Below are positions 1 to 48,257 of a stretch of 64,000 nucleotides of DNA, in pieces (the first letter of the stretch is position 1; each line of letters starts with the position of its first letter). Under the pieces are notes generated by a model. That model saw nothing but the letters and a program-made list of their open reading frames with translations. It was not told where the DNA came from and ran no database searches. Source of the DNA: Sulfurovum sp. (GTDB lineage: Bacteria; Campylobacterota; Campylobacteria; Campylobacterales; Sulfurovaceae); assembly GCA_027049035.1 (NCBI GenBank), contig JALTVI010000018.1, forward strand, positions 124,001 through 188,000, read 5' to 3'. Made by a program: the position numbers and the translations under genes.

Positions 1-481
1 TGGTGTACTCCAGTTCGGAGGTGAGCAGGTACTCCTCTTTCATAGGCTGTGGGCAGTTTTTGGGGTAGATGCACGTCGAGCCCAGGAACATCAGCTTCTT
101 GACACTGTGTTTGAAGCTCTGGTGGATGATGTTGTTCTGTATCTGCAGGTTCTCGTAGATGAAGTCCGCACGGTAGGTGTTGTTGGCGACAATGCCGCCT
201 ACCTTGGCTGCAGCTAGGAAAACAAATTCGGGTTGATGGCGTTCGAAGAAGTCTGCAACTGCCTGAGTATCCAGGAGATCGAGATTTTCCCAGTCTATTG
301 GTGTATTGGTGTATTGGTTATTGGTTACTGGGGGACGGGTGTGGTAATTGGCTATGATGTTGGTGTAACCCTTTTCCAGCAGGTTTTTAATGATGGCTGA
401 GCCTACAAGACCTGTGCCGCCGGCTACAAAAATTTTACTCTTTTTGGTTATTGGTGTATTGGTATATTGGTTATTGGACAT
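1..481 (-). CDS. fcl: GDP-L-fucose synthase, N-terminal part (cut by window start)
   Basis: Predicted NADPH-dependent epimerase/reductase making GDP-L-fucose from the 4-keto sugar produced by Gmd. About 160 residues are visible. The Rossmann motif VAGGTGLVGSA is near residues 19-29, FLAAAKVGGI near 84-93, and the GSTCIYP segment with the catalytic-serine region is near 136-142; all are typical of this SDR family. The first ATG (479-481) lies inside the end of the upstream four-helix-bundle gene, 11 nt before that gene's stop. Two heptad arrays are read as protein: residues 2-13 and about 51-62, both containing the string NNQYTNTPI, which normal family members lack. It lies downstream of gmd with a cassette between them. 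The call is firm; the true start could be any codon just before the Rossmann strand. Confidence 0.88.
   Translation of the reverse strand, partial: MSNNQYTNTPITKKSKIFVAGGTGLVGSAIIKNLLEKGYTNIIANYHTRPPVTNNQYTNTPIDWENLDLLDTQAVADFFERHQPEFVFLAAAKVGGIVANNTYRADFIYENLQIQNNIIHQSFKHSVKKLMFLGSTCIYPKNCPQPMKEEYLLTSELEYT
297..332. repeat. Heptad array inside fcl (ATTGGTGT/ATTGGTT family)
   Basis: Consecutive units of 8, 8, 7 and 7 bp (ATTGGTGT twice, ATTGGTT twice) followed by a degenerate unit. Read on the minus strand it adds a short Asn/Thr/Pro-rich stretch to fcl and keeps the frame. It is the same sequence class as the arrays at 444, 855, 36132, 56841, 61728 and 62331. Confidence 0.85.
444..477. repeat. 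Heptad array, inner flank of cassette 1
   Basis: Units TTGGTTA, TTGGTGTA, TTGGTATA, TTGGTTA, then TTGG (7, 8, 8 and 7 bp, total 30 before the partial unit). It contains the stop codon of the four-helix-bundle gene (471-473) and encodes residues 2-13 of fcl in another frame. Confidence 0.85.
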
Positions 482-839
482 TTGTAGTTTTCCTTTTGAT
501 ACTTTCTATAAAACTGTTAAGCTTTTTGCCTAATGTATTGATATAGTTCATCATCTCTTCGAAGAGTGCTTTGTCAATTAGACTACGCTTGTAAAGCAGA
601 TAGATCCAATGTTTTGACTCCCATAGGGAACCTCTGGCATTGTAGTAGAACTTCATACTGTCTCTATAGTGAAACCTGCCATAACCTTCTGCGATATTTG
701 CACCGATTGAATCGATGGAACGTAAAGTTTGATCACCAATATTGTATTTTAGATTGTTTGGCATGGCCTGATAAATGTTCCATATCTTTTCACTCAGTTT
801 CAATGACAGTTGATAAATTTCCAGATTACCAAGTTCCAA
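471..839 (-). CDS. Four-helix-bundle protein (23S rRNA intervening-sequence protein family)
   Basis: A 122-residue all-helical protein of the TIGR02436/IVS-protein family, also related to the Avd accessory protein of diversity-generating retroelements. Family hallmarks seen are SIGANIAEGYGR near residues 44-55 and FYYNARGSLWES near 64-75. The start is a TTG at 837-839, chosen because AAGGAG lies about 9 nt upstream. The stop lies within the inner heptad array, and the last 11 nt overlap the fcl start, so translational coupling is plausible. No biochemical function is established for free-standing members; related proteins form oligomeric bundles that bind nucleic acid. A second, diverged homologue at 2087-2440 has the same array setting. 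Confidence 0.85.
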   Translation of the reverse strand: MELGNLEIYQLSLKLSEKIWNIYQAMPNNLKYNIGDQTLRSIDSIGANIAEGYGRFHYRDSMKFYYNARGSLWESKHWIYLLYKRSLIDKALFEEMMNYINTLGKKLNSFIESIKRKTTNVQ

Positions 840-2068: not shown

Positions 2069-2098
2069 CGTGTTACGTACTACGTGTTACGTGTTACG
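2069..2098. repeat. Heptad array, inner flank of cassette 2
   Basis: Four units with the second one variant (CGTACTA among CGTGTTA units). It contains the last codons and stop of the four-helix-bundle gene. The gmd RBS follows directly. Confidence 0.85.
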
Positions 2099-2440
2099 AT
2101 TTTTGTTGAGGCTGTTTTTCAGTTTGGACAACATCGAGAGAATGTGATCCGCTTCATCGATCCATCTCTTCCCCTCTTTTTTGTCGATGTAGCCTATATC
2201 CATTCCGATATAGGTCTGCGTCGCAAATTCGGCGGCGGAACCTTTGGCGATGTCCAGGAACCTGAGCTGCTCTTTGATGGACTCTTTCTCCATACCTTCG
2301 GCAATGTTGCTCGGAATGGAGAGACCCGCCCGAGTAATCTGGTCCCTGAAACCGAAATCCCGACAATCACGGAACGCTTTGTAGACATTGGCGGAAAGTC
2401 TGGCACTCTTCTTCCAAACATCCAGTTTCTCACATTTCAT
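2087..2440 (-). CDS. Four-helix-bundle protein (IVS-protein family), second copy
   Basis: A 117-residue member of the same family as 471-839. It shows the conserved SIPSNIAEGMEKES segment (near residues 41-54) and the RFLDIAKGSAAE segment (near 60-71). The two copies share only family motifs, so they are not a recent duplication. The ATG at 2438-2440 follows an AAGGA site. The last residues (NRNT) and the stop are encoded by the flanking heptad array. It sits co-directionally between manC and gmd, so it would be on the polysaccharide transcript. Its function is not established; coupling with the flanking arrays is the main clue. Confidence 0.87.
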   Translation of the reverse strand: MKCEKLDVWKKSARLSANVYKAFRDCRDFGFRDQITRAGLSIPSNIAEGMEKESIKEQLRFLDIAKGSAAEFATQTYIGMDIGYIDKKEGKRWIDEADHILSMLSKLKNSLNKNRNT

Positions 2441-5086: not shown

Positions 5087-5236
5087 ACTACCGCTCCCCC
5101 TCGTTTTTGTAGTCAGGTGTATTATACCATCCAAAAGTGACATTTGTGTGACATTTTCAAAAAAGTGCCGCCAATTGTAACAATTTCGGCCATCGATGCC
5201 TCAATGGAATAGGGGGTCATTCCAAATAGAGACTTA

Positions 5237-6424
5237 TCAGTATAAAAACCCAAACAACCAAAGCGGCATTGCATTGTCATACCCACTCTCTATATCGTCT
5301 ATCACCAAATAGGCATTTTGCACGCCTATGATCTGCTTGGCATCTTTGGATTTCCCGCCTACCTCCAGTATGATCTTTTCATCGACCAGGAAGTCGCCCT
5401 GATGGTGGTAGTGCACCTGATGAGTGGTTGACAGTTGTGAGACCAAGAAACTCTCCCGTACGGCACCCACATCCGCTTTGGCACACAGGACGGCAAAAAG
5501 GTTGGGATTGTTGAGGAGTATTTTATTGGGGGCTTGAATGGTTTTGTGCCCTTTGCTACCTCTAACGATGTTAAGAAGGGAGCCTTTTTGCATATACTCC
5601 AAGTACTTGGAGAGAGTACTCCATGAGACACCGGCACTCGCAGAAAGCTTAGACTTGTTGACTTCATAGGGGGTCGTACTGCAGAGCATATAGAGCACTT
5701 TTTTAAGCGCATCGAGCTTTTCATAGCTGATGTTGAAAATGGATGCCAGGTCACTGTCTATTGTCGTGTTAACCACTTCTAGCAATCGGTCGCTGTAGGA
5801 GCTAATACCCTCTTTGAAGAAAGGGTATGCACCATGATCCAAATAGTCAGAGAAGTGTTCCAGAGGCTTCACCTCACTGAGTATATCTACGGTGATATCT
5901 TCGTGAGAAGTGACGATCTCATCTAGCGTATATGAGGGAAGACGTGCAATGTTCTTGAGTGCAAGATATTCTCTGAAAGAGAGTACGGGCATTTCATAGA
6001 CCAGGGCTCTTCGTGAAAGATCGCCTATTTCATGTTTGATATTCATCGCAGAGGAGCCGGAGAAGATCACTTGAAGATCGGTAAAGTCATAGATCGCTTT
6101 GATATGTGCAGAGAAGTCCTTGACCTTGTGTATCTCATCGAGCAGAAGCAGCTTGCCGCCGTGGGTATAGAAGTCATCGGCTATGGCATAAATATCTGCA
6201 TTGAGAACAGAAGGGTGGTCGCAGGAGATATAGAGGATTTGGGAAGATTTATACTTGCTTGCCTTTGCATACTGATGCATCAGCGTTGTTTTGCCCGATC
6301 CTCTGCCCCCTACGATACCGATGACCTGGGCGGAAAAATCTATCTGTTCATACAGAAAACGCTTGAATGCGGAGGGTTTTGTACTCAAAAAGCGTTTCGA
6401 AAGCTTACTTAATATAGGTATCAT
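5237..6424 (-). CDS. AAA-type ATPase with DUF4143-like C-terminal domain
   Basis: A 395-residue ATPase of the AAA_14/DUF4143 class. Walker A is GGRGSGKTT at 39-47 and Walker B is LLLLDEIHKV near residue 92-101. A middle segment (roughly 150-280) and a C-terminal region ending in VGGKSKDAKQIIGV resemble the restriction-like fold reported for the family. Members are common in accessory loci and their role is not established. It is followed, at the same strand but with a shorter homologue elsewhere, by 36272-37363. A 34-bp copy of its 3' end is found at 8757-8790, just upstream of the primase-helicase gene, evidence of a former tandem or recombined copy. Confidence 0.8.
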   Translation of the reverse strand: MIPILSKLSKRFLSTKPSAFKRFLYEQIDFSAQVIGIVGGRGSGKTTLMHQYAKASKYKSSQILYISCDHPSVLNADIYAIADDFYTHGGKLLLLDEIHKVKDFSAHIKAIYDFTDLQVIFSGSSAMNIKHEIGDLSRRALVYEMPVLSFREYLALKNIARLPSYTLDEIVTSHEDITVDILSEVKPLEHFSDYLDHGAYPFFKEGISSYSDRLLEVVNTTIDSDLASIFNISYEKLDALKKVLYMLCSTTPYEVNKSKLSASAGVSWSTLSKYLEYMQKGSLLNIVRGSKGHKTIQAPNKILLNNPNLFAVLCAKADVGAVRESFLVSQLSTTHQVHYHHQGDFLVDEKIILEVGGKSKDAKQIIGVQNAYLVIDDIESGYDNAMPLWLFGFLY

Positions 6425-6536
6425 TTTTTCTCTTTTTATATGAAATGCATTTAATAGTTAAAACATTATAGTATAAAATACATTTAATAGCAAATGAGTG
6501 TTATCATTATACTTTAAGCATTAAATTACATAGTGA
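6425..6536. other. AT-rich spacer between ATPase and primase-helicase
   Basis: It holds two near-identical stretches, ATGAAATGCATTTAATAG (6439-6456) and AAATACATTTAATAGC (6476-6491), a degenerate direct repeat that could be an operator for the ATPase gene reading leftward. No gene is seen. Confidence 0.4.
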
Positions 6537-8747
6537 CTAATGATGAAAAAGGCTCCCGCTTGTATTTTCTAATACATATCCCATATTCTTATATGCTTTG
6601 GAGCGTTTAGCGAAACTGGCACGCAGCATAGGCATAAATTCATCTACAAAATCTACGGCAATACACTGTTGTCCTCTTCTTCCAATGCGTCCTAGATACT
6701 GTATCACACGCCCAGAAAAAGATACTGGCATCGTAAAGACTATAGTATCCAAATGTGAAAAATCAATTCCCTCACCAATATAGCTGCTGGTTGAAAGAAT
6801 GATTCTGGCATCTTGTGCCTCTTTTATTGCAGCCTTTTGTATCTTTTGGCTCAAACCACCATGCAGCAGCACGGAATAAATATCTTTTGCATCAAGCATA
6901 TGATAAAGAATATTCAGATGCTCTATACGGTCACTAAGAATAAGGATATTACGATCTGAGAGCTTTTGTATTTCAGCCACAATAAGGCTATTTCGGACTT
7001 CATCCTCTGCCAGTTCATTTAAAATCGAAGAAAAATCTTCATACATCGATTCAAACTCTGTCTGAATTGTAATAAGTCTATGAGTCTGTGACCGTTTCTG
7101 TTTTTTTTCAAACCCGATCTCCCCGCACTGCATGAACATAATCGGGTGCATTCCATCCTGACGTATTGGTGTGGCACTAAGCCCCAGCAAATATTTACCC
7201 CTAAAACGCTTGAGCGGTACCTCAAACGATACAGCAGGGATATGGTGCACTTCATCAACAATGACTTGAGTATACTCTTCTATGAGTTCCGGTCTGTTTT
7301 TGAGTGATTGTAGTGTTGCTACATCAATCATGGATGAAATCCGTTTCTTGCCTTTACCCAGTTGTCCGATCTCTTTTGAATCGATTTCAAAGTACTCACT
7401 CAGTCTTTTAACCCACTGCTCCAGCAGCGTTGTTTTGTGTACCAAGATCAATGTATTGACACTCCGCTTAGAGATGATGGCTGAAGCGATAGCAGTTTTG
7501 CCAAATCCTGGTGGTGCGATCAGTACTCCATAGTCTCTGCTTAGAAGGGCATGAAAGGCATCTATCTGCTCTTCTCTCAATTTTAAATAAAACTTTTTTT
7601 TCTTGATGGAGTGGACTGGTCGTTTGTCTTCAATTGTGAGCATAGCACCGTACTTGTTAAAGAACTGCTGTATTTTGGCAATAAGTCCTCTTGGCAGAAT
7701 AATATACCGCTCATTAAGATCATAAGAGGTAATCACCCGTGGCGTATTGTAGGTTGACTTACGCAGGCTTTGTCTGATATAAAACTCCGGGTTTGTAAAG
7801 GATGCCATACGTTGCAATCGATTCATTACCTCTTTTGTTAATTGTGTTTTTTCAATATAGAGTGCATCATAAAGTACGGCTTTGGTATATTTTGGAAAAA
7901 CCAGGGGTTTCTCCTCTTTAACATCCCACGGCATGAGATTTGACTGACCGTTGGTCATATGAACTGCATGTGTTTTTAAAATAGTGTTTAGCTTTTGCGT
8001 AGAAATGCGTTCTGCATTTCGAAGTATCAACCACTGGTCATCATAGGGTATCAGTGTGTCTACATCAACAAAGATGGTCTTGTTCTCACTTCGTGATCCA
8101 TAATGAAGCGGCAGGGCAATCAGGTTGCCAAGTGCATCCGGTGCAACAAAGTCTTGATTGGGGAACATGCGATCATAGCTTTTCATGTCGATACCGCTGC
8201 TAACATCCATCGCCCTTGTAAGTATCAAATCCCCAAGACGCCTTACATCAACTGCTCTTACAAGGGTGTCAAAGAAGTACCAGATATGTATGCCGTTCCC
8301 TGATTTTGATATTTCGAAAAGTGGTGAAAGCTGTAACTTTTGGGAGACGGCATGAATCGCTCGGGCATCTTCCACAAAGCTCTTTTTATCCAGATCAAGC
8401 ACCAGAAACTTTGCCATCACCTGATCAACGACAGCATAGGTGCCAAGTCGTATTTTCCCCTCCAAATGTTTTCGGATCACATCAGGCGTAAGGGGCTTGT
8501 AATCTGTACCCTTGTATGTATAGGTTTGGGGAAAGTACCCTTTCTTGGTACCATCTCTCTTTACCCAGTACTGCGCATAAACATCTTCTCGTCCGACAAA
8601 GAGCGACTTGAAGAGTGCTATTTTCTCCTCTTTGCTTAGTACAGAATATTTGGATATCTGTTGTTTTATTGCCCTGATTTCCGCTTCGATGATAGCTTTT
8701 TGTGACTCAAGTGCTTTGAGTTTTTGATAGAGTGTATCTACTTGCAT
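6537..8747 (-). CDS. TOTE-type archaeo-eukaryotic primase fused to superfamily 2 helicase
   Basis: A 736-residue two-domain protein. The N-terminal part (about 40-250) matches the AEP primase domain of TOTE conflict systems: the catalytic DxD is LDLDK (Asp118, Asp120), the sxH-like motif is SGNGIHIW (His154), and SYDRMFPNQD with GNLIALPL follows at about 190-214. The C-terminal part (about 390-736) is an SF2 helicase with Walker A PPGFGKT (412-418), DEVHH (498-502), SAT (524-526) and motif VI near YLGRIGRRGQQ. A predicted coiled coil occupies residues 1-35. TOTE systems are predicted, from comparative genomics, to act in conflict between mobile elements and hosts. No transposase or ORC-like partner is nearby, so it may be a stand-alone form. 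The only close partner is the ATPase downstream. Confidence 0.85.
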   Translation of the reverse strand: MQVDTLYQKLKALESQKAIIEAEIRAIKQQISKYSVLSKEEKIALFKSLFVGREDVYAQYWVKRDGTKKGYFPQTYTYKGTDYKPLTPDVIRKHLEGKIRLGTYAVVDQVMAKFLVLDLDKKSFVEDARAIHAVSQKLQLSPLFEISKSGNGIHIWYFFDTLVRAVDVRRLGDLILTRAMDVSSGIDMKSYDRMFPNQDFVAPDALGNLIALPLHYGSRSENKTIFVDVDTLIPYDDQWLILRNAERISTQKLNTILKTHAVHMTNGQSNLMPWDVKEEKPLVFPKYTKAVLYDALYIEKTQLTKEVMNRLQRMASFTNPEFYIRQSLRKSTYNTPRVITSYDLNERYIILPRGLIAKIQQFFNKYGAMLTIEDKRPVHSIKKKKFYLKLREEQIDAFHALLSRDYGVLIAPPGFGKTAIASAIISKRSVNTLILVHKTTLLEQWVKRLSEYFEIDSKEIGQLGKGKKRISSMIDVATLQSLKNRPELIEEYTQVIVDEVHHIPAVSFEVPLKRFRGKYLLGLSATPIRQDGMHPIMFMQCGEIGFEKKQKRSQTHRLITIQTEFESMYEDFSSILNELAEDEVRNSLIVAEIQKLSDRNILILSDRIEHLNILYHMLDAKDIYSVLLHGGLSQKIQKAAIKEAQDARIILSTSSYIGEGIDFSHLDTIVFTMPVSFSGRVIQYLGRIGRRGQQCIAVDFVDEFMPMLRASFAKRSKAYKNMGYVLENTSGSLFHH

Positions 8748-8756
8748 ACAATTATA

Positions 8757-8790
8757 TCAGTATAAAAACCTAAATAGCCACAAAGGTATT
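8757..8790 (-). pseudogene. 3'-end remnant of a second ATPase copy
   Basis: A minus-strand read gives PLWLFRFLY followed by a stop; the intact ATPase at 5237-6424 ends PLWLFGFLY and stop. The 34 bp align almost base for base with 5237-5270. Upstream codons soon reach stops. It shows that an ATPase gene once ended 9 nt before the primase-helicase start, so the two genes probably formed a unit. Confidence 0.6.
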
Positions 8791-9013
8791 TTACACTACT
8801 TTTATCCAGCATAGCGCCTCTTTTTGTAAGTGTTTATGGTCATTTACAATTTTAACAGTTTTTTTACTTTGTAAATGCTTATATACATATACACTATACC
8901 AGAAGCTGAATCGGTTTTCGAGATTTGGTTAGCAATAGGTTAGCAAAGTATTTTTGAGATTTTTGTAAAATCGCTTGAAAGCTCGATGATATCAGTGTTT
9001 GTGAAGATTGTAA
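8791..9013. other. Gene-free AT-rich stretch left of the island core
   Basis: No gene is seen. It contains GGTTAGCAATAGGTTAGCAA at 8928-8947, about 80 bp left of the core at 9014. A matching element (GGTTGGAAATAGGTTGGAA) stands at the same distance left of the right core at 29801. Confidence 0.5.
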
Positions 9014-9040
9014 AAAATGGATGGCCGGGAGAGGGGGATT
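9014..9040. repeat. Left attachment core (attL) of the island
   Basis: Copy of the 3' end of tRNA-Ser(UGA), including the CCA, discriminator, acceptor strand and part of the T arm, without the rest of the tRNA. Identical over 27 bp to 29801-29827. Confidence 0.88.
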
Positions 9041-9333
9041 TGTCGAGTTTATTTTATTCGGCTTCAGTCATAGTTTTTCATAGGTATTCACATTTAGCTT
9101 TATTTCGGGATCATGGGCTCTTATGAGCTTTAACTGCATTATCATATTCATTCAATCATATTCAAATTTTGTCTTATTTATTCTTTTTATGTTGGAATAT
9201 GTTGGAAAAAGTGTTACCTTGAGTTTGTCATATTCGTTCATACTTTATCATACATTATCAGCCTTATAAAAACAAAAAAACGCTTAAGAAATTCTCTTCT
9301 ATCATGGTTATATATCATATCCAAGGATAACTA
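9041..9333. promoter_or_regulatory. Integrase upstream region with repeated arm-like motifs
   Basis: TCATATTC occurs three times (9142, 9156, 9228) with related ATCATACATT motifs near 9247, and a 10-bp direct repeat TATGTTGGAA occurs at 9189 and 9199. Such short repeats beside an att core are typical of integrase arm-type or excisionase sites; this role is inferred. Confidence 0.45.
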
Positions 9334-10446
9334 ATGAGTAAATCAAAACAGAGAATAAAAACCAAATATACAGGTGTGTTTTATCGTGAATCAATTACCA
9401 ATGGTAAAACAGATAAAACATTTTATGTAGTATATCGTGATCAGGGAAAAGTAAAAGAATATAAGGTTGGTAAGTTCAGTGAAGGTATGCGGGTTGAGAG
9501 AGCCAATGCAATCAGGATTTCAATTATTAATAGTGTACGTTTAGGATCAGATGCTCCAGATATATTAGGCAGATCCAAGAAAAAAGTAGTGACCTTTGAT
9601 GAAGTTGCCATGCAATATTTTAAAACCAAGGAGCTTCACAATAAAACAAATGCGCAGGCTAAAAGTAAATACAAGAGTCAGTTGAAGCCTTATATAGGGC
9701 ATAAAGACTTAAATAATATTACAAAAAAAGATGTATTACATATTCAAGCTGAAATGGCAAAAACAAAAGCACCCAAAACAGTAAATCAATATATTCAATT
9801 CATACGTACAATTTTTTACTATGCGATGGAAGAAGAGTTGTATAGCGGAAAAAATCCTGCGAAAGGAGTAAAAGAGCAAAAAGTTGATAATAGGCGTGAA
9901 AGATTTTTAACCGTAGATGAAGTCAAGCTTTTATTAAAAACTGTAAAAAAGGATCACCAGCTTTATCTTTTCACACTACTTTCATTATCAACAGGCTCTA
10001 GATCAGGAGGTATTCTAAGTATTACAAAAAAAGATGTGGAAATTAGTAATTCCGTTTTACAAATTAAAGATTCAAAAAATAATTCAACCTATGCAGGTTT
10101 TTTTAATGGAGAACTCCAACAAATTCTTGCAAATGAAATAAAAGATTTAAAAAAGAATGACTCAATTATTACACTTCCGCCAAGAACTTTAAGGCGGAAA
10201 ATGAAAAAAGTACTTGATCGTCTCTTTAATGAAGGACTGGAAAAAGATGATCGAAAAAATAGGGTTGTAATCCATACTTTAAGACATACATTCGCAAGTC
10301 AATTAGCAATTAATGGTACACCCATATATACAATACAGAAACTTTTGAATCATAAAGATATTAAGCAGACGCAACGATATGCTAAACTTGCACCAGATAG
10401 TGGGATGGACATGGTTCGGTCAATGATGAAGAATTATTTTGAATAG
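9334..10446 (+). CDS. int: Tyrosine integrase of the island
   Basis: Site-specific recombinase of 370 residues. It has an N-terminal arm-binding-like region (1-80), a SAM-like core-binding domain (about 85-180) and a catalytic domain (about 190-365). Catalytic residues seen are Arg223 (GSRSGG), His314 and Arg317 in HTLRHTF, His340 and Tyr349 (TQRYAKL). An AAGGA site precedes the ATG. It lies 294 bp inside the left core, and its product is expected to recombine the tRNA-Ser core sequences to insert and excise the island. No separate excisionase was recognised nearby. Confidence 0.95.
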   Translation: MSKSKQRIKTKYTGVFYRESITNGKTDKTFYVVYRDQGKVKEYKVGKFSEGMRVERANAIRISIINSVRLGSDAPDILGRSKKKVVTFDEVAMQYFKTKELHNKTNAQAKSKYKSQLKPYIGHKDLNNITKKDVLHIQAEMAKTKAPKTVNQYIQFIRTIFYYAMEEELYSGKNPAKGVKEQKVDNRRERFLTVDEVKLLLKTVKKDHQLYLFTLLSLSTGSRSGGILSITKKDVEISNSVLQIKDSKNNSTYAGFFNGELQQILANEIKDLKKNDSIITLPPRTLRRKMKKVLDRLFNEGLEKDDRKNRVVIHTLRHTFASQLAINGTPIYTIQKLLNHKDIKQTQRYAKLAPDSGMDMVRSMMKNYFE

Positions 10447-10876
10447 AAATAAGATAACTATTTTAAAAATGATATGTAAGATAGTGCTAAAACTGTAAAG
10501 TCCTCTGTAAACTTTTGTAAACTAGTCTGTAAAATAAATAAATTTATTTTTTTGTATTTTACAGCAGCAGGCCTAGTATTAGGAGGGTATTCAAATAGAC
10601 CAAGGTATAAGGAAACGGGTATTTTTTTAAAATGTCTTCAAAAGATTGCTGCCCCACTCTTCCCTTTACACTTAAAACCTGTTACTATTTTCATATGTTT
10701 TATAGATGACCTATATCTTAAAATAGGGTTCATGGTGAAAGTTACACCATCTTCACCGATGTCCTAAATAAAATGGGCGATTAGCACGACTAGAGTGAAA
10801 GATCAACTTGGGATGCTACAAGGTTCAAGAGCAGATTGACTTAACTGAAAATTACCCAATAAGGGACAAAAATAAC
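10447..10876. other. Spacer between the two recombinase genes
   Basis: No convincing gene. TGTAAA recurs four times between about 10493 and 10535 at irregular 10-15 bp spacing, possibly protein-binding repeats. A small hairpin ATGGTG/CACCAT lies near 10731-10749. A 71-codon open frame at 10552-10767 has no good RBS and no recognisable family. Confidence 0.4.
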
Positions 10877-11800
10877 ATGAGAGGAAGTGTATATTATCAG
10901 ACATCACAGTTAGCAAAACAGATCTTCGTTGAAGGTGCTAAAAAATATGAGAAGACAGACCCTAATCATGATCATTATCAATGTGTCTCCTCCTATAAAA
11001 CCATGGAGTCCTACAGAAATGTTTGGAACAACTTTGGAAACTACCTAAAAGAGCACTGGAAACTCAAAGACTTTGAACAAATCACTACTGAACATGTGGA
11101 TGCCTATATCTCTTACAAGATCGAATATTACCCTTCTACACAATACCTCGAAAAGATAGTTTCTGCCCTTGGTAAACTTGAAATCGCATTGGAGAAGTTC
11201 TCTCTCAATATCAAAGGAAAATACAAGGAATACAACTTTGAGATACGGAAAAACAAACTTCATTATGCAAAAGTACAAAATCTTGTAGCAGATGGCTACC
11301 ACAACAGGGTTTATGCCAATCCAGAAAAGATAATTAACAGCTTGAGTCAGTTCAAACATAGAATTGCAGGGGCCATACAATACCTTGGAGGTGCTCGCAG
11401 TGAAGGGGTGACGCTCATCAAACCCGACCAGGTCCATCGTGCAGATACCCCTGATGAAATGGAAAACTTTTTAACCCATATTATCATTACCAAGGAAAAA
11501 GGTGGAAAGGAAGGGGCTGTATGGATCAATGTTAATGTTTATAATGCTTTAATGAATCATTTTGAGGAGCATAACGGCATCTTTAGAGTTTCCTATCCTG
11601 AATATGCAAAAGATATACGTCAAACTTGCTTATGTTTGGGCATCTCTCCTCATGGCTCACATGGCTTCAGGTGGACTTTTGCTCAACGTAGAGTCAGAGC
11701 ATACCAAAATCATGGATACAGTTATGAACAGGCACTCCAGGGGGTCAGCTGGGAGATGAAGCATTTTAGGGCCAGTATTACTGAGCATTATTTGGGATAA
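10877..11800 (+). CDS. Second tyrosine-recombinase-like protein
   Basis: About 307 residues. The N-terminal half resembles a SAM-like core-binding domain (YKTMESYRNVWNNFGNYL). The C-terminal half carries a candidate catalytic set: Arg in GARSEGV, His and Arg in HGFRWTF, a WEMKH segment and a terminal Tyr in EHYLG. It is clearly different from the island integrase. I prefer the ATG at 10877 (AAGGGA about 10 nt upstream) over 10808, which would add 23 residues. It could be a plasmid-type resolvase, a second integrase from a nested element, or an accessory recombinase. Activity is not certain because spacing between motifs is compressed. Confidence 0.75.
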   Translation: MRGSVYYQTSQLAKQIFVEGAKKYEKTDPNHDHYQCVSSYKTMESYRNVWNNFGNYLKEHWKLKDFEQITTEHVDAYISYKIEYYPSTQYLEKIVSALGKLEIALEKFSLNIKGKYKEYNFEIRKNKLHYAKVQNLVADGYHNRVYANPEKIINSLSQFKHRIAGAIQYLGGARSEGVTLIKPDQVHRADTPDEMENFLTHIIITKEKGGKEGAVWINVNVYNALMNHFEEHNGIFRVSYPEYAKDIRQTCLCLGISPHGSHGFRWTFAQRRVRAYQNHGYSYEQALQGVSWEMKHFRASITEHYLG

Positions 11801-11893
11801 ATATGCAGGCTTTAAATGCACTAAAAAATAGTCCATTCAGCTCACGCACCAATTTTTAAATAGAGTCAGATTAGTACTCTTCACTGCTCATGG

Positions 11894-12367
11894 CTACATA
11901 CTAAGCAATCTTAAGGTGTGTGTATGCGATCGGCAACCAGTCGAAGAACCCAATGAACATGACTTGTCAAAAAGAAATAACGCTTTTTTATAATTAATAG
12001 GAACACCTTTCCCAGTCGCATGCATTAAGCCAGCTAAGCTACAACCATTCGCATTGTTATATTTACATGATAACTCATAATATGTTAGTGCTTTACTATA
12101 ATTAGCAGGGAAATCCAATCCCTTCTCATATATGTAGCCTACACCGAAACATCCAAGGCCATTTTTGTATTTGCAGGCTATGTCATAATATTCATAAGCC
12201 ATCCTGAAATTTTTTTCATTAAGATATACATCACCAAGATCCATACAAACAGTATCATTTCCATGCATACAGGCTCGCTCCTGTATCACTATAGGGTCTT
12301 GAGAAAACAATTCACCCGATAAAATAAAAGTGGAACAAAACAAAAAGAAAGATATATACTTCAACAT
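11894..12367 (-). CDS. Secreted Sel1/Hcp-like cysteine-rich repeat protein, probably shortened
   Basis: 157 residues with a signal peptide (about 1-22) followed by helical repeats, each carrying two Cys seven residues apart (CMHGNDTVC, CKYKNGLGC, CKYNNANGC, CSLGSSTGC). This is the arrangement of Helicobacter cysteine-rich Hcp proteins, where each pair forms a disulphide. The role is periplasmic or secreted and not specifically known. The last dozen residues (SHTHTLRLLSM) do not continue the repeat, so the 3' end may be frameshifted or truncated. It starts 9 nt after the stop of the lipoprotein gene upstream and is probably co-transcribed with it. Confidence 0.75.
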   Translation of the reverse strand: MLKYISFFLFCSTFILSGELFSQDPIVIQERACMHGNDTVCMDLGDVYLNEKNFRMAYEYYDIACKYKNGLGCFGVGYIYEKGLDFPANYSKALTYYELSCKYNNANGCSLAGLMHATGKGVPINYKKALFLFDKSCSLGSSTGCRSHTHTLRLLSM

Positions 12368-12376
12368 AAGTACAAC

Positions 12377-13045
12377 CTAATAAGTATTATATTTTGCAAT
12401 AGCCGCATTAGTACATTTATTAATTGCTAAATTTTTGTGATCTGGATATTCTAAACCTGCTTTTTTACATTCTTTTCGTATATAGCTTAAAGCTTTAGAA
12501 CGATTATGTCCATATCTTCCAATAGCTATTGTTCCATATATATTGCCCATTGATGAAGCACCAGCAGCAACAAGGTAAGAAGCATTTGCACCATATGATG
12601 CTTTTATGTTCGTGTTATTTGACTTTATAATACTTTCATTTTTAGCAACTACAGTTTTCCTCTGTACAGTAAGTGTAAGTTTCATTTCATCAAGGTACCC
12701 CTGATATTTGTTGGGAGATACACGGTTTAAGAAGATCGGAGGTGAATAAATAATATGTTTAATCAGGATAGCAATGTCCCCTTTCTTGTTAATAAAATAA
12801 CGGCCAAAATATGACTTTCTTCCATTTTTTCTACTGATCGAGTACAAGTCATTTGTAGTCGAGCCAATTAGATAATAGTTCTTTTTTTTCCCATCAGCCA
12901 TAAACTCAAGTTTATCTGACTTGGAAAATATAACCTTTGTAAACCACTGACTATTCACTTTAGATTTTGGTGTATCTAGTTGCTTATTTATTGTTCCACA
13001 GCCCATAATAAGAAAGGATATTAAAATTGATATTATTAATTTCAT
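12377..13045 (-). CDS. Predicted lipoprotein of unknown function
   Basis: 222 residues, with a type II signal peptide whose lipobox is LIMGCG (Cys16). The mature part is rich in Lys, Asn and Ser with several beta-like stretches, and a short Ala/Gly-rich segment (ASYLVAAGASSMG) lies near residues 153-165. No family is recognised. It is the first gene of a two-gene unit with the cysteine-rich repeat protein and is encoded inside the island. Confidence 0.65.
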   Translation of the reverse strand: MKLIISILISFLIMGCGTINKQLDTPKSKVNSQWFTKVIFSKSDKLEFMADGKKKNYYLIGSTTNDLYSISRKNGRKSYFGRYFINKKGDIAILIKHIIYSPPIFLNRVSPNKYQGYLDEMKLTLTVQRKTVVAKNESIIKSNNTNIKASYGANASYLVAAGASSMGNIYGTIAIGRYGHNRSKALSYIRKECKKAGLEYPDHKNLAINKCTNAAIAKYNTY

Positions 13046-13428
13046 AATTCTCGCCTAATAAAAAGTTCAAAAATTTTAGCAAAAGAAAACTTTAAGTTTA
13101 TAGATAAGGGAAGGATTATCAAAATCAAAAATATACTATGTTTCGTTTATGATCGTATAAAATAAAGCAGAGGAGGGTAGAGAAATATTAGTATATTGTT
13201 GTATTGCAACATGTAAAGCTTTTAGTCACTTTCCAAATTAGAGTAAGTTGAAATTATCGTTCATGTTTTTAGCTATTTGACAATTTGATATATCTAAGCA
13301 AAAATCATAAAATAATGATAAAATATTTAGAAAGAATGGATTATGTCATTTTGTTTTATTCAAATCAGAACTACCAATAAAAGGCGGCCATATATCATGG
13401 TATTCCACATTCTAGGAGACAGGCTATC
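13046..13428. other. Intergenic region between divergent island genes
   Basis: AT-rich 383 bp. It must hold the promoters for the leftward lipoprotein unit and the rightward membrane protein (RBS AGGAGA at about 13412). No gene is seen. Confidence 0.5.
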
Positions 13429-13812
13429 ATGACCGTATTTGGGGCTATACTGGGATTAACCATACTTGGTGGCTTTGTCTATGGTGTTATTAAGCTAAAT
13501 GCCTATAGTGAGGTGACATACGGCTATACCCCGGTAAATATGATAAATATACTACTGGGGTTTATTCCCTGGGCAATTATTGTTGCAGGTATCTATGGTG
13601 AAAATCACGGAGAAGCAGACTCGCTTGCCTTAGGAATCTTCTTTGCTGCGATCGCAGCAATCTTCATTTTTCGTGGTGTTGCCAAAAAGACATCTGTAAG
13701 CATAGCTATCGCAACGGTGTTTTTCGTGATGACGATCAACATTGCTATACTTTTACTAGCAATGGGTGAAGAAGCGCGCCGAACCAATAATTACTATTAT
13801 GACGATGATTAA
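13429..13812 (+). CDS. Small four-helix membrane protein, unknown
   Basis: 127 residues with four hydrophobic segments (about 4-22, 37-55, 66-84, 92-112) and an acidic/Tyr tail (NNYYYDDD). AGGAGA precedes the ATG. No family is recognised. The next gene begins 18 nt downstream with its own strong RBS, so the two are likely co-transcribed. Confidence 0.6.
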   Translation: MTVFGAILGLTILGGFVYGVIKLNAYSEVTYGYTPVNMINILLGFIPWAIIVAGIYGENHGEADSLALGIFFAAIAAIFIFRGVAKKTSVSIAIATVFFVMTINIAILLLAMGEEARRTNNYYYDDD

Positions 13813-13830
13813 GCTGAAGGAGAAAAACAG

Positions 13831-14073
13831 ATGAAAAAAATATTTTCTTACAAAAATAGTGCCTATGGCTACGAAGTGATTAATGGTGAAGTCTGTACCA
13901 GAAAACTTCCAAGTTCAAAGCAAAAGGATGTTGAGACAATGGGCATATTTCTGGAAAAGATGATTTGTGAAACCACAACAAACGCAGTCTTTGAAGATAT
14001 TTTGGACGAACTCAAATATATGCGTGAGTCACAAGAAGAAGATGAGTTCCGAGATCTTGAAAAACTTCATTAG
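13831..14073 (+). CDS. Small soluble protein, unknown
   Basis: 80 residues, acidic C-terminal helix (ESQEEDEFRDLEKL), no recognised domain. GAAGGAG lies 9 nt before the ATG. It is paired with the membrane protein upstream, and its function is unknown. Confidence 0.55.
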   Translation: MKKIFSYKNSAYGYEVINGEVCTRKLPSSKQKDVETMGIFLEKMICETTTNAVFEDILDELKYMRESQEEDEFRDLEKLH

Positions 14074-14096
14074 CTAACCAAAAGTCCCATACTGCT

Positions 14097-14210
14097 TTAC
14101 TTTGTTTTGCTCTTGCAACTCATAAAATCATTAATTGATTTAAGAAACCAGAGAATCGCCCCTGTAAACACTATAGTTCCAACAAGAGCTATTATTTCAT
14201 TTATAGACAT
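14097..14210 (-). CDS. 37-residue single-pass membrane peptide (candidate)
   Basis: The minus strand reads ATG at 14210, then about 20 hydrophobic residues (IIALVGTIVFTGAILWFL) followed by a Lys-rich tail, and a stop at 14097-14099. The size and topology resemble small membrane toxins or regulatory peptides, but no RBS is convincing and no antitoxin RNA was identified. Low-to-moderate support. Confidence 0.35.
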   Translation of the reverse strand: MSINEIIALVGTIVFTGAILWFLKSINDFMSCKSKTK

Positions 14211-14318
14211 TTTACAACTTTTTTGCACATTTTATCATATAATAAAACAAAAGGGTTTGCATATTTTATTTAGCTACTAATTTAGTAGGATGAACTACAA
14301 CCTTGATGGTACAGAAGT

Positions 14319-14349
14319 TGCATGACTTGCCTATTGAGCCAGTCATGCA
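14319..14349. repeat. 9-bp inverted repeat
   Basis: TGCATGACT and its complement AGTCATGCA with a 13-bp loop, in a gene-free stretch between converging small genes. No T-tract follows, so it is a weak terminator candidate or a binding site. Confidence 0.45.
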
Positions 14350-14430
14350 TAGTGAGTGTATAAAAAATGATAATATTGCTGTCTTGTAAGTCTTAACTTA
14401 TCAAGAGTCATAATTAACACATTCTATAAC

Positions 14431-14676
14431 TTACTTTTTATTTTTTTCGATTTCTTTCTCAATGAACTTCGCTGCAGCCATATTTAGCCAAAATTTTTCT
14501 GCCTTATAGTCGGGAGGGTATTTCTTACTTATTTTTTCCAATCTAAGCATCCTTTTAGGCTCTTTTCTGCGCGCTAGTGCACGATCTATCATTCTACCAA
14601 GAATGGGGCGAACTATGGTTAGTGTGACTATGGTAGCAATAGCAACACTAATAACTATTGTAACTGGTGATAACAT
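14431..14676 (-). CDS. Small membrane protein, unknown
   Basis: 81 residues with one N-terminal membrane segment (about 3-23) and a very basic cytoplasmic tail. AAAGG precedes the ATG at 14676. It is third in a tight minus-strand trio with 15154-15570 and 14679-15161. No family recognised. Confidence 0.5.
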   Translation of the reverse strand: MLSPVTIVISVAIATIVTLTIVRPILGRMIDRALARRKEPKRMLRLEKISKKYPPDYKAEKFWLNMAAAKFIEKEIEKNKK

Positions 14677-14678
14677 TA

Positions 14679-15161
14679 TTAACCTTTCATTTTTTTAATA
14701 AACGTCGCAACATATGAATGTGACACCTCTAGTCGATGATATCGATATAAGAAATTTGAAATTTGTCGATATGATAGGCCTTCTTGATCTTTTAGTACTA
14801 ATATTTTATTTTTAAGATTTAATAATTTGTCCCATTTATCACTATCTATGTGTTTTTTGAATTGTTTTGCCTGCATAGATGTGGGGTTTTTTACGCTGTA
14901 TATATTTTGTGACCTATTTTTTCCTTTTTGCATTTTCAGCAAATCATAGATTTCACGGGCAGCAAGAGTGCAAGCAGCTAAATAAAGTAGCGACTGGTTC
15001 TCGTCTTTGTATTTGCTTAACTCAAAATAATATTTTTTTTGTAAGACAAATGCCTCTAACTGAAGCTCTTCGCTCTGCCGAAAAAGCCAACGAAGTTTTT
15101 TTTGTCGTTGTTCTTGAGAAAGCTTGACATATTTGTCAAGCTTTTTGTTCAAATTATCCAT
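14679..15161 (-). CDS. Basic helical protein with possible C-terminal helix-turn-helix
   Basis: 160 residues, strongly basic. The C-terminal segment (LSYRQISNFLYRYHRLEVSH, about 132-151) reads like a helix-turn-helix seen in mobilisation and replication accessory proteins. The start overlaps the end of the upstream gene by 8 nt and the next gene follows after 2 nt, so the three are translationally linked. A role in mobilisation or element maintenance is a guess from context. Confidence 0.5.
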   Translation of the reverse strand: MDNLNKKLDKYVKLSQEQRQKKLRWLFRQSEELQLEAFVLQKKYYFELSKYKDENQSLLYLAACTLAAREIYDLLKMQKGKNRSQNIYSVKNPTSMQAKQFKKHIDSDKWDKLLNLKNKILVLKDQEGLSYRQISNFLYRYHRLEVSHSYVATFIKKMKG

Positions 15162-15570
15162 GTCTTGTTTCCAGTATTCGGGATAAAGATGGCTTCATGA
15201 ATGGTTTAATTGGGTTAGATTGAAGATACAAAACAGCAGCAACTTCAATTTGGGGATAATATGTTTTTATATTTTTTTTCAGATTTATTGGATGAGGGCC
15301 CCAAACCGGCTTTCCTTTTCGCAGTTCTTCTTTTTGTCTTGCAGCGGTCGCAGCTGAAAAATTCTTAAGTACAGCACATGTCTCTTCGATATCATATGCG
15401 AAGTCATCACCGATAAGATCCTTTATTTTCTCTCTTTCGTCTGCTGTAGTAACTCGAATAATATCCTTAATGCTCATAGGTATCCCAAGTAAATAAAGCT
15501 CCTGCTTACACTCGGCCATGCTCATTATATTTTTTTCCTCAACAAAATTCTCCAGTTCCGCCTTTGTCAT
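15154..15570 (-). CDS. Hypothetical protein, unknown
   Basis: 138 residues, mostly helical, with no recognised domain. AAAGGAAAA lies just before the ATG at 15570. First gene of the overlapping minus-strand trio; divergent from the regulator-like gene at 15644. Confidence 0.5.
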   Translation of the reverse strand: MTKAELENFVEEKNIMSMAECKQELYLLGIPMSIKDIIRVTTADEREKIKDLIGDDFAYDIEETCAVLKNFSAATAARQKEELRKGKPVWGPHPINLKKNIKTYYPQIEVAAVLYLQSNPIKPFMKPSLSRILETRHG

Positions 15571-15643
15571 ATTTTTCCTTTTTTATTCTTTTTATTTAAG
15601 TATATTGGAAATATATCATAGCTTATATTATTAAGTCAAGTGA

Positions 15644-16240
15644 TTGAAGAATAATAAGACAAAATTGTGTATCATTTTAGAAAAGTGTAGGAAATATTTT
15701 CAAAAAAGGAAACTTGTGAAGTCATCTATCGCTAAGCTCTTGAGCGTTACTGATCGAAGTGTTTATAATTGGTCCCAGGAAAAAAGGCCTATTATTTCAT
15801 TTTTATATAAATACTTTTCGGAACAGGATATTGAAGATTATTTGAAGTTCGGAAAAATCGAAAAGCTCGAATTTTTAAACTTGTCTGAGCCTATTAGTTT
15901 ATATGAGTTTGAATCTTTATCAATTATTTTATATAAGATAGAAGAGTATACACGGATGAATAAGAAGGTTAATCGTGAAGGCTTTTTAATTAAGATATAC
16001 CGTACATTGAGAGACTTTAATGGTGATCCTAAGGACTATGTTCCTTTTTTATCTTCCTATAATATGCACACATTTGAATCTCTAAGAAATGTATTGTATG
16101 GTTCTACACTAGATGATATTATTGAGTTTTACGAGAATTATTTATCAGGAGCAGAACGAAAACTACTTTTTGAAAAAAAGTTTTACATAATGCCTACGCT
16201 TAAAGCAATGAGAAAACACAATGCTCATTTAAAAGATTGA
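15644..16240 (+). CDS. Helix-turn-helix protein, unknown
   Basis: 198 residues. The segment SIAKLLSVTDRSVYNWSQEKRPI near residues 28-50 looks like a DNA-binding helix-turn-helix. The rest is helical and unrecognised. The annotated start is TTG at 15644 without a clear Shine-Dalgarno, so the N-terminus is uncertain. It is divergent from the trio ending at 15570 and converges on the restriction operon; it may regulate one of them. Confidence 0.55.
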   Translation: MKNNKTKLCIILEKCRKYFQKRKLVKSSIAKLLSVTDRSVYNWSQEKRPIISFLYKYFSEQDIEDYLKFGKIEKLEFLNLSEPISLYEFESLSIILYKIEEYTRMNKKVNREGFLIKIYRTLRDFNGDPKDYVPFLSSYNMHTFESLRNVLYGSTLDDIIEFYENYLSGAERKLLFEKKFYIMPTLKAMRKHNAHLKD

Positions 16241-16242
16241 TT

Positions 16243-16998
16243 TTAGACTATCTGTTCTAACTTCCTCTTTCGATCTTTCCAGTCCGGCATAATGAGATCA
16301 AGGTAGCTGTAGAATTTTGTGCTGTGGTCTGCATGTATCAAATGGGCCAACTCGTGAAGGACCACATACTCAATGCACTCCGTCGGCTTCTCGATCAGCC
16401 TCAAATTGAGATTGATATATCCTTTCGTCGGGTTACAGCTTCCCCATCTTGTTTTCATCTCCCGTATGCAGACGCGGTCGATTTCTCTTTTGACAATAGT
16501 CTGGTATTTTTCAATCGCTTTTTGGAAGTGTATCTCTGCTTTGGCAGTGTACCACGCCTTCAACAGTCTCTTTTTCTTTTCGGTATGCGTTTTGTCCCGC
16601 ACAAAAACCTGAAGGTACCCTCTTTGGAGTTTAACCCCCTCATCAAGACTCTCAATGACTTTTAGCCGGTAATTCCGCCCCAGGTAAGAGAAGTTCTCGC
16701 CACTGACATATTCTTTTTCGACCACCTGGTTATGTGTCTTGAAATAGGCGATCTTTTTGTCTATCCATTCAGATCTTTTTTTCAACACATAGTCGATATC
16801 CCGCTGTGTGCAGGCTCTGGGGGCAGTAAGCACTACCTCTCCTGTCGGCCTGACTTTCAGATTGATATGCTTGACGTCTTTTTTGATAATGACAACTACA
16901 GGGGACGCGACTTTAGTCGCGTTTGCATCACTCTTTTTTTCAGCGACTGCACCTAAAGGCATACGCTTCGATAAAGTCGCTGCCCCTTTCTCAGGCAT
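16243..16998 (-). CDS. YgjP-like zinc metallopeptidase (DUF45) with repeat-derived N-terminus
   Basis: 251 residues. The zinc-binding motif HELAHLIHADH near residues 215-225 and MKTRWGSCNPTKGYINLNL (about 183-201) mark the YgjP/DUF45 family, often found in type I restriction operons. Its start overlaps the hsdR stop by 8 nt. Residues 1-33 are not part of the family; they are encoded by two hairpin-forming repeats (16906-16921 and 16941-16982), so a repeat seems to have been inserted at the 5' end. No nearer start codon is obvious. The role in the restriction operon is unknown. Confidence 0.85.
   Translation of the reverse strand: MPEKGAATLSKRMPLGAVAEKKSDANATKVASPVVVIIKKDVKHINLKVRPTGEVVLTAPRACTQRDIDYVLKKRSEWIDKKIAYFKTHNQVVEKEYVSGENFSYLGRNYRLKVIESLDEGVKLQRGYLQVFVRDKTHTEKKKRLLKAWYTAKAEIHFQKAIEKYQTIVKREIDRVCIREMKTRWGSCNPTKGYINLNLRLIEKPTECIEYVVLHELAHLIHADHSTKFYSYLDLIMPDWKDRKRKLEQIV
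16906..16982. repeat. REP-like double hairpin in the 5' end of the YgjP gene
   Basis: CGCGACT-TT-AGTCGCG (16906-16921) is a perfect 7-bp stem. CAGCGACT (16941-16948) and AGTCGCTG (16975-16982) form an 8-bp stem with a 26-bp loop. Both share CGACT/AGTCG, like paired REP (REPIN) sequences. They are translated as the N-terminal extension of the metallopeptidase. Confidence 0.65.
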
Positions 16999-19900: not shown

Positions 19901-20107
19901 TTTTGCAGAAAATGGGTACTGTGTGCTTTTGTACTCAAAGCCGTTGAGCTTTTGGAGCTGTTTAAGCAAGATATCTTTGAGGACCACTTGCCTCGTGCTG
20001 CTTCTGTGCTGTGGCATCTCCTCTGGAGATATGTAGGTATAGCCCATATTTTTCAGGAGGTCTATGGTGTTGTTTTGAATTTGCGTTTCGTTTGTGTTTG
20101 GGGTCAT
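16991..20107 (-). CDS. hsdR: Type I restriction endonuclease subunit R
   Basis: Motor and nuclease subunit of a type I restriction-modification complex, cleaving unmethylated DNA after ATP-driven translocation. 1038 residues, normal length. An N-terminal nuclease segment carries PDLVLFINGIPFGVVELKK (Asp and ExK). The SF2 motor follows, with Walker A TQGSGKSLT, DESHR box and FTGTPL motif III, and the ARVNRLYEGKDFG motif further on. It is separated from hsdM and hsdS by four genes on the same strand. The start overlaps the stop of the unknown gene upstream (ATGA), which ties that gene to the restriction operon. Confidence 0.95.
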   Translation of the reverse strand: MTPNTNETQIQNNTIDLLKNMGYTYISPEEMPQHRSSTRQVVLKDILLKQLQKLNGFEYKSTQYPFSAKNIAKAVDDLNVSLNEGLMTANQKISDQLLLGNSYSEELIDGVKKSFSLHYIDFKNPENNVFHVTEEFVVDRINQQEKVKTRRPDLVLFINGIPFGVVELKKSSVSTEEGISQMLRNQSQNEIPNLFKYVQITLAGNNHSPQYGTTGTPKKFYAVWKEKELDLSSLVKDRTPSALDKSIYALFHKERVVELLHSFIIFDGKVKKIARYQQYFAIEKIMDRIGKLDATGRRHGGLIWHTQGSGKSLTMVMLAKVIKREIVNSKVVIVTDRKDLDKQIHNTFNNSEVKAERAKSGRHLIELLQSGKSVITTIINKFEKVKNENVVLHDPNTFILVDESHRTQGGDMHKAMRKVFPEACYLGFTGTPLMRREKNSFAKFGGEIHRYTIDQAVEDKAVLPLLYEGRLVDQWVNDEKGLDRRFEQIARYLNDEQKLDLKKKWARFQKVASSERRLEMIMLDINEDIKKRLQGTGFKAMLATSSKYEAIKYHKLFEEMGDVRTAFVISAPDSREGYSEVDDENKAFIQEEWSKMMKKYGDEEKYLDKIKDEFINGDEIELLIVVDKLLTGFDAPRASVLYIDKLLKEHNLLQAIARVNRLYEGKDFGFIVDYRGLLGDLDKALNDYSGLADFDEEDIAGAVFDIKEEIARVKTYYDYLEELFREVENKSDQESYEVFLADVEKRKLFYDYLSHYARALKLALSSEKIEDVFTSGQIVEYKEKMKFYAELRKAVRIRYYEQVDFGKYEKQMQKLLDTFISADEVNQLTKLVNIFDEEFEAEIERIVGDNARADAILSATTAVITEKRESNPAYYDRLSKRIAEIIEEYKEKRLSEEEKLKHAKEIREMLLKEEAEETRNYPESIRKNTHARAFYDNLQELFSKAMNNVDERIMVAEESSYCNRPQEDLLTRTVLKITEIFEEASKKPDWKNNSDMRNKIEGKIEDILWDIEDTYGMKFDNSDELLAMIQQIGVNNYA

Positions 20108-21222: not shown

Positions 21223-21224
21223 AA

Positions 21225-22655: not shown

Positions 22656-22707
22656 TCTTCCCCACCACTTTCACGGTCACATTGAGTGATATACCCTATC
22701 TTTAGAT

Positions 22708-23469: not shown

Positions 23470-23587
23470 ATCTTCTCCGTTAACCTCTAGTTAAACTTAT
23501 TATAGTATCATTCTTCTAATGGATCCCGATATCACCCGAAGATTTAAGTAGGGCTTGCCTCTCAACGATGCTGGTCGGGATACTGAC
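23470..23587. other. Spacer with an ATCCCGA/TCGGGAT inverted repeat
   Basis: ATCCCGA near 23523 and TCGGGAT near 23575 frame about 45 bp containing GCCTCTCAACGATGC. A cruciform or decayed repeat is possible. It separates the AlbA_2 stop from the Abi gene start. Confidence 0.35.
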
Positions 23588-25809: not shown

Positions 25810-25858
25810 ATTGTCACCCCGACTTTGATCTGCTTATGCCCCTCTCTAACCTTGCTCA

Positions 25859-36250: not shown

Positions 36251-36285
36251 TCACTCCTCACTCCTCACTCCTCACTCCTCACTCT
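36251..36285. repeat. TCACTCC heptad array at the end of the ATPase gene
   Basis: Five 7-bp units (TCACTCC four times, then TCACTCT). The gene's stop (36272) lies within it, and its last residues (ESEE) are array-encoded. Confidence 0.88.
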
Positions 36286-48168: not shown

Positions 48169-48257
48169 ATATGCAATGTTTGCAAAGTTATAAGTGATGT
48201 AAGCTTTGGACATATTGCCTTAATATTTGTTAGTATATAATACATAGAAGGATGAAT

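What the first reader, a model, noticed from the sequence alone, without database searches (positions are those of the whole stretch)
5237..8790. TOTE-type primase-helicase beside a DUF4143-type ATPase
A protein with AEP catalytic residues (DxD and His154) fused to an SF2 helicase lies without known TOTE partners. A remnant shows that an ATPase gene formerly also ended just before it, suggesting the two form a recurring unit.
Basis: partly seen in the sequence, partly recalled or inferred. Interest (0 to 1): 0.55.

Follow-up and report, generated by a model that had tools for sequence, protein, structure and literature searches.

The report
Primase-helicase gene with swappable toxin partners
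A bacterial gene for a combined DNA primase and helicase usually sits right behind one of several interchangeable toxin-type genes or an ATPase gene, and the copy read here has lost its ATPase partner by a deletion whose scar is still visible.

Summary
ORF 6537-8747(-) is an AEP-TOTE primase (D118, D120 and H154 present) fused to an XPB-like SF2 helicase. ORF 5237-6424(-) is an AAA_14/DUF4143-like ATPase. The remnant is real: window 8738-8893 keeps the promoter region, start codon and last 11 codons of an ATPase gene that is intact in relatives G064 and G015, where it ends 9 nt before the AEP start codon.

The survey supports recurrence and changes its meaning. In 28 Campylobacterota loci with the upstream side visible, the slot directly before the AEP gene holds a DUF4143 ATPase (6 intact, 2 remnants), AbiEi/AbiEii (7), a zeta-toxin module (4) or RelB/YafQ (1); two more have a divergent HigBA. 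Near relatives that differ in partner become homologous again at the AEP start codon. Fourteen of 25 distant loci show the same (HigBA, AbiE, Fic, PIN, DUF4143 or DUF234 ATPases). One of 75 random neighbour genes and 0 of 17 Arcobacteraceae core orthologues do. Those orthologues have lost the primase triad.

So the ATPase occupies a slot otherwise filled mainly by toxin-antitoxin genes. The ATPase now lying downstream is a separate mobile gene, not the conserved partner. A defence role is inferred, not shown. I call it a new variant of a known kind.

The parts
6537..8747 (-). AEP primase-polymerase fused to XPB/UvsW-like SF2 helicase, 736 aa, intact
7983..8627 (-). AEP-TOTE domain (aa 41-255); D118 at 8394-8396, D120 at 8388-8390, H154 at 8286-8288
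   Evidence: coordinates computed from residue numbers
6672..7586 (-). SF2 helicase core (aa 388-692): Walker A K417, DEVHH 498-502, SATP 524-527, QYLGRIGR 683-690
8757..8792 (-). last 11 codons plus stop of the lost upstream ATPase gene (KIPLWLFRFLY*)
8738..8812 (-). 24-codon mini-ORF made by the deletion (start MLDK..., out of frame with the ATPase end); its stop overlaps the AEP start region
8841..8877 (-). retained inverted repeat (arms 8869-8877 and 8841-8849, CATTTACAA/TTGTAAATG) in the old ATPase promoter region, also in G064 and G015; operator role inferred
5237..6424 (-). AAA_14/DUF4143-like ATPase; a separate single-gene cassette (DNA homology to G035 and G003 spans 5236-6496)

Best explanation
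The AEP-helicase is the constant last gene of a small operon. The slot in front of it is filled by one of several interchangeable toxin-antitoxin modules, or by a DUF4143/DUF234-type ATPase. SHOWN by sequence: tight co-directional spacing; recurrence; repeated partner change at the AEP start codon; near absence of a Shine-Dalgarno-like site of its own when the AEP gene follows a co-directional partner; universal retention of the primase residues in the mobile forms; loss of the primase triad in the toxin-free core orthologues of Arcobacteraceae; and in the window, loss of the ATPase partner by an internal deletion that left the promoter region. INFERRED: the partner cassette supplies an autoregulated promoter and translational coupling, so that AEP-helicase and partner are made together. 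The AEP-helicase acts on abnormal or foreign DNA (unwinding, priming, copying). The partner is a growth-arrest back-up or addiction module, swapped when it is evaded. The DUF4143 ATPase would be a toxin-like equivalent.
For: Upstream slot: 20 of 28 Campylobacterota loci (6 intact ATPases, ATPase remnants in the window and G038, 7 AbiE, 4 zeta, 1 RelB/YafQ) plus 2 with divergent HigBA; 14 of 25 distant loci. Control: 1 of 75 random genes from the same loci is related to any slot toxin or ATPase, and 0 of 17 Arcobacteraceae core orthologues has one (five upstream genes checked by Pfam). Breakpoints: L093 (ATPase) against L082 (AbiE), 86% identity starting one base before the ATG; L078 (YafQ) against L092 (zeta), 86% from the ATG; L079 against L078 from the ATG. 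G004 and G060 share the upstream chromosomal flank but have ATPase and HigBA. Partner labels need at least 12 changes on the AEP tree, 0 of 200 shuffles as low. AEP-linked ATPases need at least 4 changes among lone ones. SD-like site: 1 of 19 coupled AEP genes, 2 of 2 with a divergent partner, 23 of 31 ATPases. DxD present in 53 of 53 mobile copies that cover it; D118 in 0 of 15 Arcobacteraceae orthologues that have the domain.
Against: Eight of 28 Campylobacterota loci and 11 of 25 distant ones do not have such a gene co-directional in the slot. E. coli, alphaproteobacterial, Streptomyces and Lacticaseibacillus homologues mostly have no toxin gene directly upstream. The window copy is intact after losing its partner, so the partner is dispensable for keeping the gene. 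The DUF4143 ATPases are mostly found without an AEP gene. No functional data, and no paper found on this pairing. The inverted-repeat enrichment at ATPase promoters is modest (7 of 28 against 3 of 65).
Confidence: 0.5

Rival explanations
1. Addiction only. The toxin or ATPase cassette stabilises a mobile unit, and the AEP-helicase is a replication or repair gene carried along, without joint action.
For: Toxin families are diverse, as in plasmid addiction; 88 plasmid records hold a match over at least 80% of the protein; window and G038 AEP genes lie behind remnants of a lost partner.
Against: Fixed order and spacing, junction at the start codon, and the lack of an own ribosome site tie AEP expression to the partner.
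Confidence: 0.25
2. Genome-repair enzyme. The AEP-helicase is a general repair or replication-restart protein, as suggested by the core version in Arcobacteraceae; toxin genes gather nearby because both sit in islands.
For: Core orthologues with conserved neighbours in Arcobacteraceae; fold matches to XPB and T4 UvsW.
Against: Core orthologues are primase-dead by residue and have no toxin partner; island clustering does not give 20 of 28 against a control of 1 of 75.
Confidence: 0.15
3. The ATPase next to the gene today, 5237-6424, is its functional partner and the upstream remnant is an older duplicate.
For: Same family; it lies 112 nt downstream on the same strand.
Against: Orthologues in G035 and G003 lie alone elsewhere; I saw no other locus with the ATPase directly after the AEP gene among those listed.
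Confidence: 0.05

Closest known systems
AEP-TOTE family (Pfam PF22548; RefSeq product 'TOTE conflict system archaeo-eukaryotic primase domain-containing protein')
   Same: AEP domain at E 1.4e-67 followed by an SF2 helicase; RefSeq gives the name to E. coli homologues
   Different: Interchangeable toxin or ATPase partner directly upstream. I could not read how TOTE systems were defined: no held paper matched
CRISPR-associated Prim-Pol, CAPP_A helicase type (PMC8211822, section 6 read)
   Same: Prim-Pol followed by helicase; that paper says this layout is the most prevalent among non-CRISPR CAPP relatives; predicted fold matches CAPP 7nqe (target TM 0.81)
   Different: NCBIfam CAPP type A1 model 101.8 bits against a cut-off of 200; no Cas genes seen among the window ORFs listed (read by eye) or in the neighbours listed
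Toxin-antitoxin-chaperone (TAC) systems (recalled, no call)
   Same: A constant third gene behind varying toxin-antitoxin modules
   Different: The third gene here is a primase-helicase, not a SecB-like chaperone
PDC-S01 ATPases (PADLOC candidate family)
   Same: Window ATPase 3.9e-30; partner ATPases L063 3.2e-25, L064 6.1e-24, L151 3.5e-76
   Different: Here it stands in the toxin slot before an AEP-helicase; that PDC-S01 is a single-gene defence candidate is read from its name and recalled

Membership tests
AEP-TOTE (PF22548) | AEP domain above the curated cut-off | tested here: met
   228.1 bits against 27
AEP-TOTE (PF22548) | catalytic DxD and His | tested here: met
   D118, D120, H154
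TOTE conflict system | further system genes as defined by its authors | not testable with these tools
   definition not in the held library
CRISPR-associated Prim-Pol (CAPP) | equivalog-level score | tested here: not met
   101.8 bits against 200
CRISPR-associated Prim-Pol (CAPP) | operon with Cas1/Cas2 | tested here: not met
   none recognised by eye among the window ORFs; no search for Cas genes in the rest of the genome was made
Toxin-antitoxin module (for the ATPase) | toxicity neutralised by a partner | not testable with these tools
   needs an experiment
Toxin-antitoxin module (for the ATPase) | occupies the same operon slot as known toxin-antitoxin modules | tested here: met
DUF4143 (PF13635) | score above cut-off | tested here: inconclusive
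   window ATPase 21.9 against 28.1 bits; L151 78.1

The most novel reading that the evidence does not exclude
A modular immune system: a fixed AEP-helicase detects or processes foreign DNA, and its operon carries a replaceable killer, with AbiE, zeta, YafQ, HigB, Fic or PIN toxins and the uncharacterised DUF4143/DUF234 ATPases as functional equivalents. The widespread orphan DUF4143 ATPases would then be toxin-like abortive-infection genes.
Probability: 0.3. Interest if true: 0.8.

Novelty: new variant of a known kind. Interest (0 to 1): 0.58.

Why it matters
If true, it gives a working lead for two uncharacterised families at once: DUF4143-type ATPases, which stand where toxins stand, and AEP-TOTE helicases, which would be the fixed half of a toxin-coupled unit. 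The set of closely related AEP genes with different partners is a natural swap experiment, and the core orthologues in Arcobacteraceae that lack the primase residues are a natural contrast for separating primase from helicase function.

Tried and rejected
Att-site idea: the repeat TTTTTATACTGATA at 5235 and 8755 looked like the ends of an integrated element. Rejected: both copies are the 3' ends of homologous ATPase genes, and the order (remnant, AEP, intact ATPase) does not fit insertion into an ATPase 3' end. Literature: ten searches; I found no paper on DUF4143 with toxin-antitoxin (0 papers) or on TOTE conflict systems (0). PMC5862659, PMC10345425 and PMC11035748 were read as passages only; of PMC8211822 passages and section 6. 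A global MAFFT alignment of all AEP rows could have misled on the Arcobacteraceae AEP domain, so it was repeated on the N-terminal parts with the same result. Phage records: 455 match, 0 of 455 cover 80% of the protein; the rows shown match the helicase part only. Viral contigs: 80 loci kept, 2 of them (L212, L213) near full length at 35%; not followed. The ATPase model is of medium quality (pLDDT 71) and its PDB matches are general AAA proteins, so no nuclease fold is claimed.

Rows dropped before counts: L068, L081, L094 (no upstream sequence), L101 (no AEP ORF), L067 (fragment without the gene start, same genome as L099), and duplicate loci L072, L073, L085, L086, L098. Of the matches I fetched 20 places. 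The 45-member case set was chosen by hand (some genes are divergent or second upstream, loci without a candidate left out), so the strict counts in the report rest. Of the 17 Arcobacteraceae upstream genes, 5 were checked by Pfam, the rest recognised by eye.
Full report
OBSERVATION. The window lies in a genome whose nearest named AEP relatives are Sulfurovum MAGs. ORF 6537-8747(-) encodes 736 aa with an AEP-TOTE domain (aa 41-255, E 1.4e-67), ResIII and Helicase_C. Sequence and fold searches put the helicase nearest XPB and T4 UvsW, and the AEP domain near the Prim-Pol domain of CAPP (7nqe, target TM 0.81; model pLDDT 84). ORF 5237-6424(-) is an AAA_14 ATPase with a sub-threshold DUF4143 match and a PADLOC PDC-S01 match.

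THE REMNANT. Upstream of the AEP start codon the window keeps KIPLWLFRFLY plus a stop, 9 nt before the ATG. G064 and G015 have an intact ATPase gene ending 9 nt before their AEP ATG. Window 8820-8893 is 86% identical to the region before the G064 ATPase start, and homology resumes at 8793. So about 1.16 kb of ATPase coding sequence is missing in the window. The scar leaves a 24-codon mini-ORF whose stop overlaps the AEP start. G038, the closest relative (84%), keeps only the last 26 ATPase codons at a contig edge, and its AEP gene carries an internal stop. The ATPase now downstream (5237-6424) has orthologues in G035 (89%) and G003 (86%) in other surroundings, with DNA homology limited to window 5236-6496. 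It is therefore read as a separate mobile gene.

THE RECURRING UNIT. AEP-helicase relatives: 9 of 78 genomes of the genus by strong match, 30 loci in named genomes, 56 of 398 genomes of the order. After removing duplicates and loci without upstream sequence, 28 Campylobacterota loci of the mobile clade remain. Directly upstream and co-directional: intact DUF4143-type ATPase in 6 (L063, L064, L069, L091, L093, L095), ATPase remnant in 2 (window, L062), AbiEi/AbiEii in 7 (L076, L077 with 185 nt spacing, L082, L083, L084, L130, and L088 with one small ORF between), zeta toxin with or without a called 61-aa ORF in 4 (L075, L079, L080, L092), RelB/YafQ in 1 (L078). That is 20 of 28. Two more (L065, L066) have a divergent Gp49/HTH (HigBA-like) pair. 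L131 has a ParE gene about 770 nt away. L074, L087, L089, L090 and L099 have none of these. Families were checked by Pfam on representatives and on a hand-chosen set of 45 neighbours (AbiEii 9, AAA_14 9, DUF4143 7, zeta 4, Gp49 4, Fic 3).

DISTANT RELATIVES. Of 25 distant loci (L096, L097, L100, L150, L151, L192-L211), 14 have a toxin-antitoxin or ATPase gene co-directional within about 200 nt: Fic (L097, L203, L211), AbiEii (L100, L204), ATPase_2/DUF234 (L150, L194), AAA_14/DUF4143 (L151), HigBA-like (L192, L205-L208, the last four nearly alike), PIN (L200, behind a 72-aa ORF). On plasmids I looked at 18 of 104 records: 4 of the 5 Arcobacteraceae ones viewed have AbiE upstream and one has AbiE downstream; an Acinetobacter plasmid has HigBA about 25 nt upstream and another an Xre-type antitoxin. 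In Pantoea and E. albertii the gene sits next to a recombinase gene, with a Tn3-family transposase gene behind it in E. albertii; E. coli, alphaproteobacterial and other records mostly show no toxin gene in the slot. So the association is strong in Campylobacterota and patchy beyond.

CONTROLS. Among 75 genes drawn at random from the same loci, none of the slot families is among those matched by two members, and one gene (in L202) was related to a slot protein of toxin or ATPase kind. Seventeen Arcobacteraceae orthologues lie behind bactofilin-, FolC- or EngA-like genes, none behind a toxin or ATPase of these kinds.

SWAPS. On an AEP tree of 33 rows (29 labelled), the partner labels need at least 12 changes (shuffled mean 17.9, 0 of 200 as low) and the ATPase label 6. 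Homology between relatives with different partners begins at or one base before the AEP ATG: L093 (ATPase) against L082 (AbiE), L078 (YafQ) against L092 (zeta), L079 against L078. L082 against L083, with the same partner, stays homologous across AbiEi, AbiEii and AEP (8336-12178). G004 and G060 share the chromosomal flank upstream but carry an ATPase and HigBA. AEP-linked ATPases are scattered among unlinked ones (at least 4 changes; the place of L093 and L095 is unsure).

EXPRESSION. A Shine-Dalgarno-like tetramer lies before 1 of 19 AEP genes that follow a co-directional partner or its remnant, 2 of 2 with a divergent partner, 23 of 31 ATPases and 101 of 189 ORFs of 200 aa or more with naive starts. 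This fits translational coupling. Seven of 28 ATPase promoters have an inverted repeat with arms of 9 or more, against 3 of 65 control genes and a shuffled mean of 1.5; this is suggestive only.

CATALYSIS. D118 and D120 are present in all 53 mobile copies that cover them, and the helicase residues in nearly all; L062 and L095 have broken ORFs. The Arcobacteraceae core orthologues keep the AEP domain by sequence (E 5.5e-50 for L140) but 0 of 15 keep D118 and none keeps the triad; two helicase-only forms (L153, L155) lack the domain, and L156, also without it, is cut by a contig edge. One genome, G368, has both kinds.

READING. Architecture and swapping are shown. That the unit is a conflict or defence system, that the ATPase is toxin-like, and that AEP-helicase and partner act together are inferences. 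The link to toxin genes and PADLOC families makes defence the likeliest role, but addiction with a carried repair gene is not excluded.

Noticed in passing
L140-L159 (Arcobacteraceae, family f8): Core AEP-helicase orthologues with conserved neighbours, primase triad lost and helicase intact; two helicase-only forms (L153, L155)..
   Followed up: partly
window 48252-51330 (+): Two low-GC ORFs (765 and 264 aa, no Pfam match) inside a ribosomal protein gene cluster; GC about 0.27-0.31 against 0.45-0.5 around them..
   Followed up: partly
window 36272-37363 (-): Another AAA_14 ATPase ORF (363 aa, E 2.2e-9) just upstream of a ribosomal protein S6-like ORF (by eye)..
   Followed up: no
window 9334-28923: Low-GC island with an integrase-like gene at 9334 and type I restriction-modification-like genes (by eye), ending near a tRNA cluster at 29.8-30.3 kb..
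   Followed up: no
window 471-839 (-) and 2087-2440 (-): 23S rRNA intervening-sequence-type protein (E 7.6e-29) and a similar-looking second ORF flanking GDP-mannose-type genes (by eye)..
   Followed up: no
L296 and L305: Enterobacterial plasmids carry the AEP-helicase between a recombinase gene and a transposase-type gene, as a possible transposon passenger..
   Followed up: no
E. coli genomes (L310-L312): 681 of 5426 E. coli genomes hold at least 80% of the E. coli homologue; the three places viewed lie behind Gp2- or YagK/YfjJ-type genes..
   Followed up: partly
L076, L082, L083, L084, L077, L088, L130: AbiE-AEP operons may be leaderless: a TATAAT-like box lies within about 15 nt of the AbiEi start codon..
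   Followed up: no
C-terminus of the ATPase family (A7): Nearly invariant C-terminal end PLWLFGFLY in linked and unlinked ATPases; role unknown..
   Followed up: no
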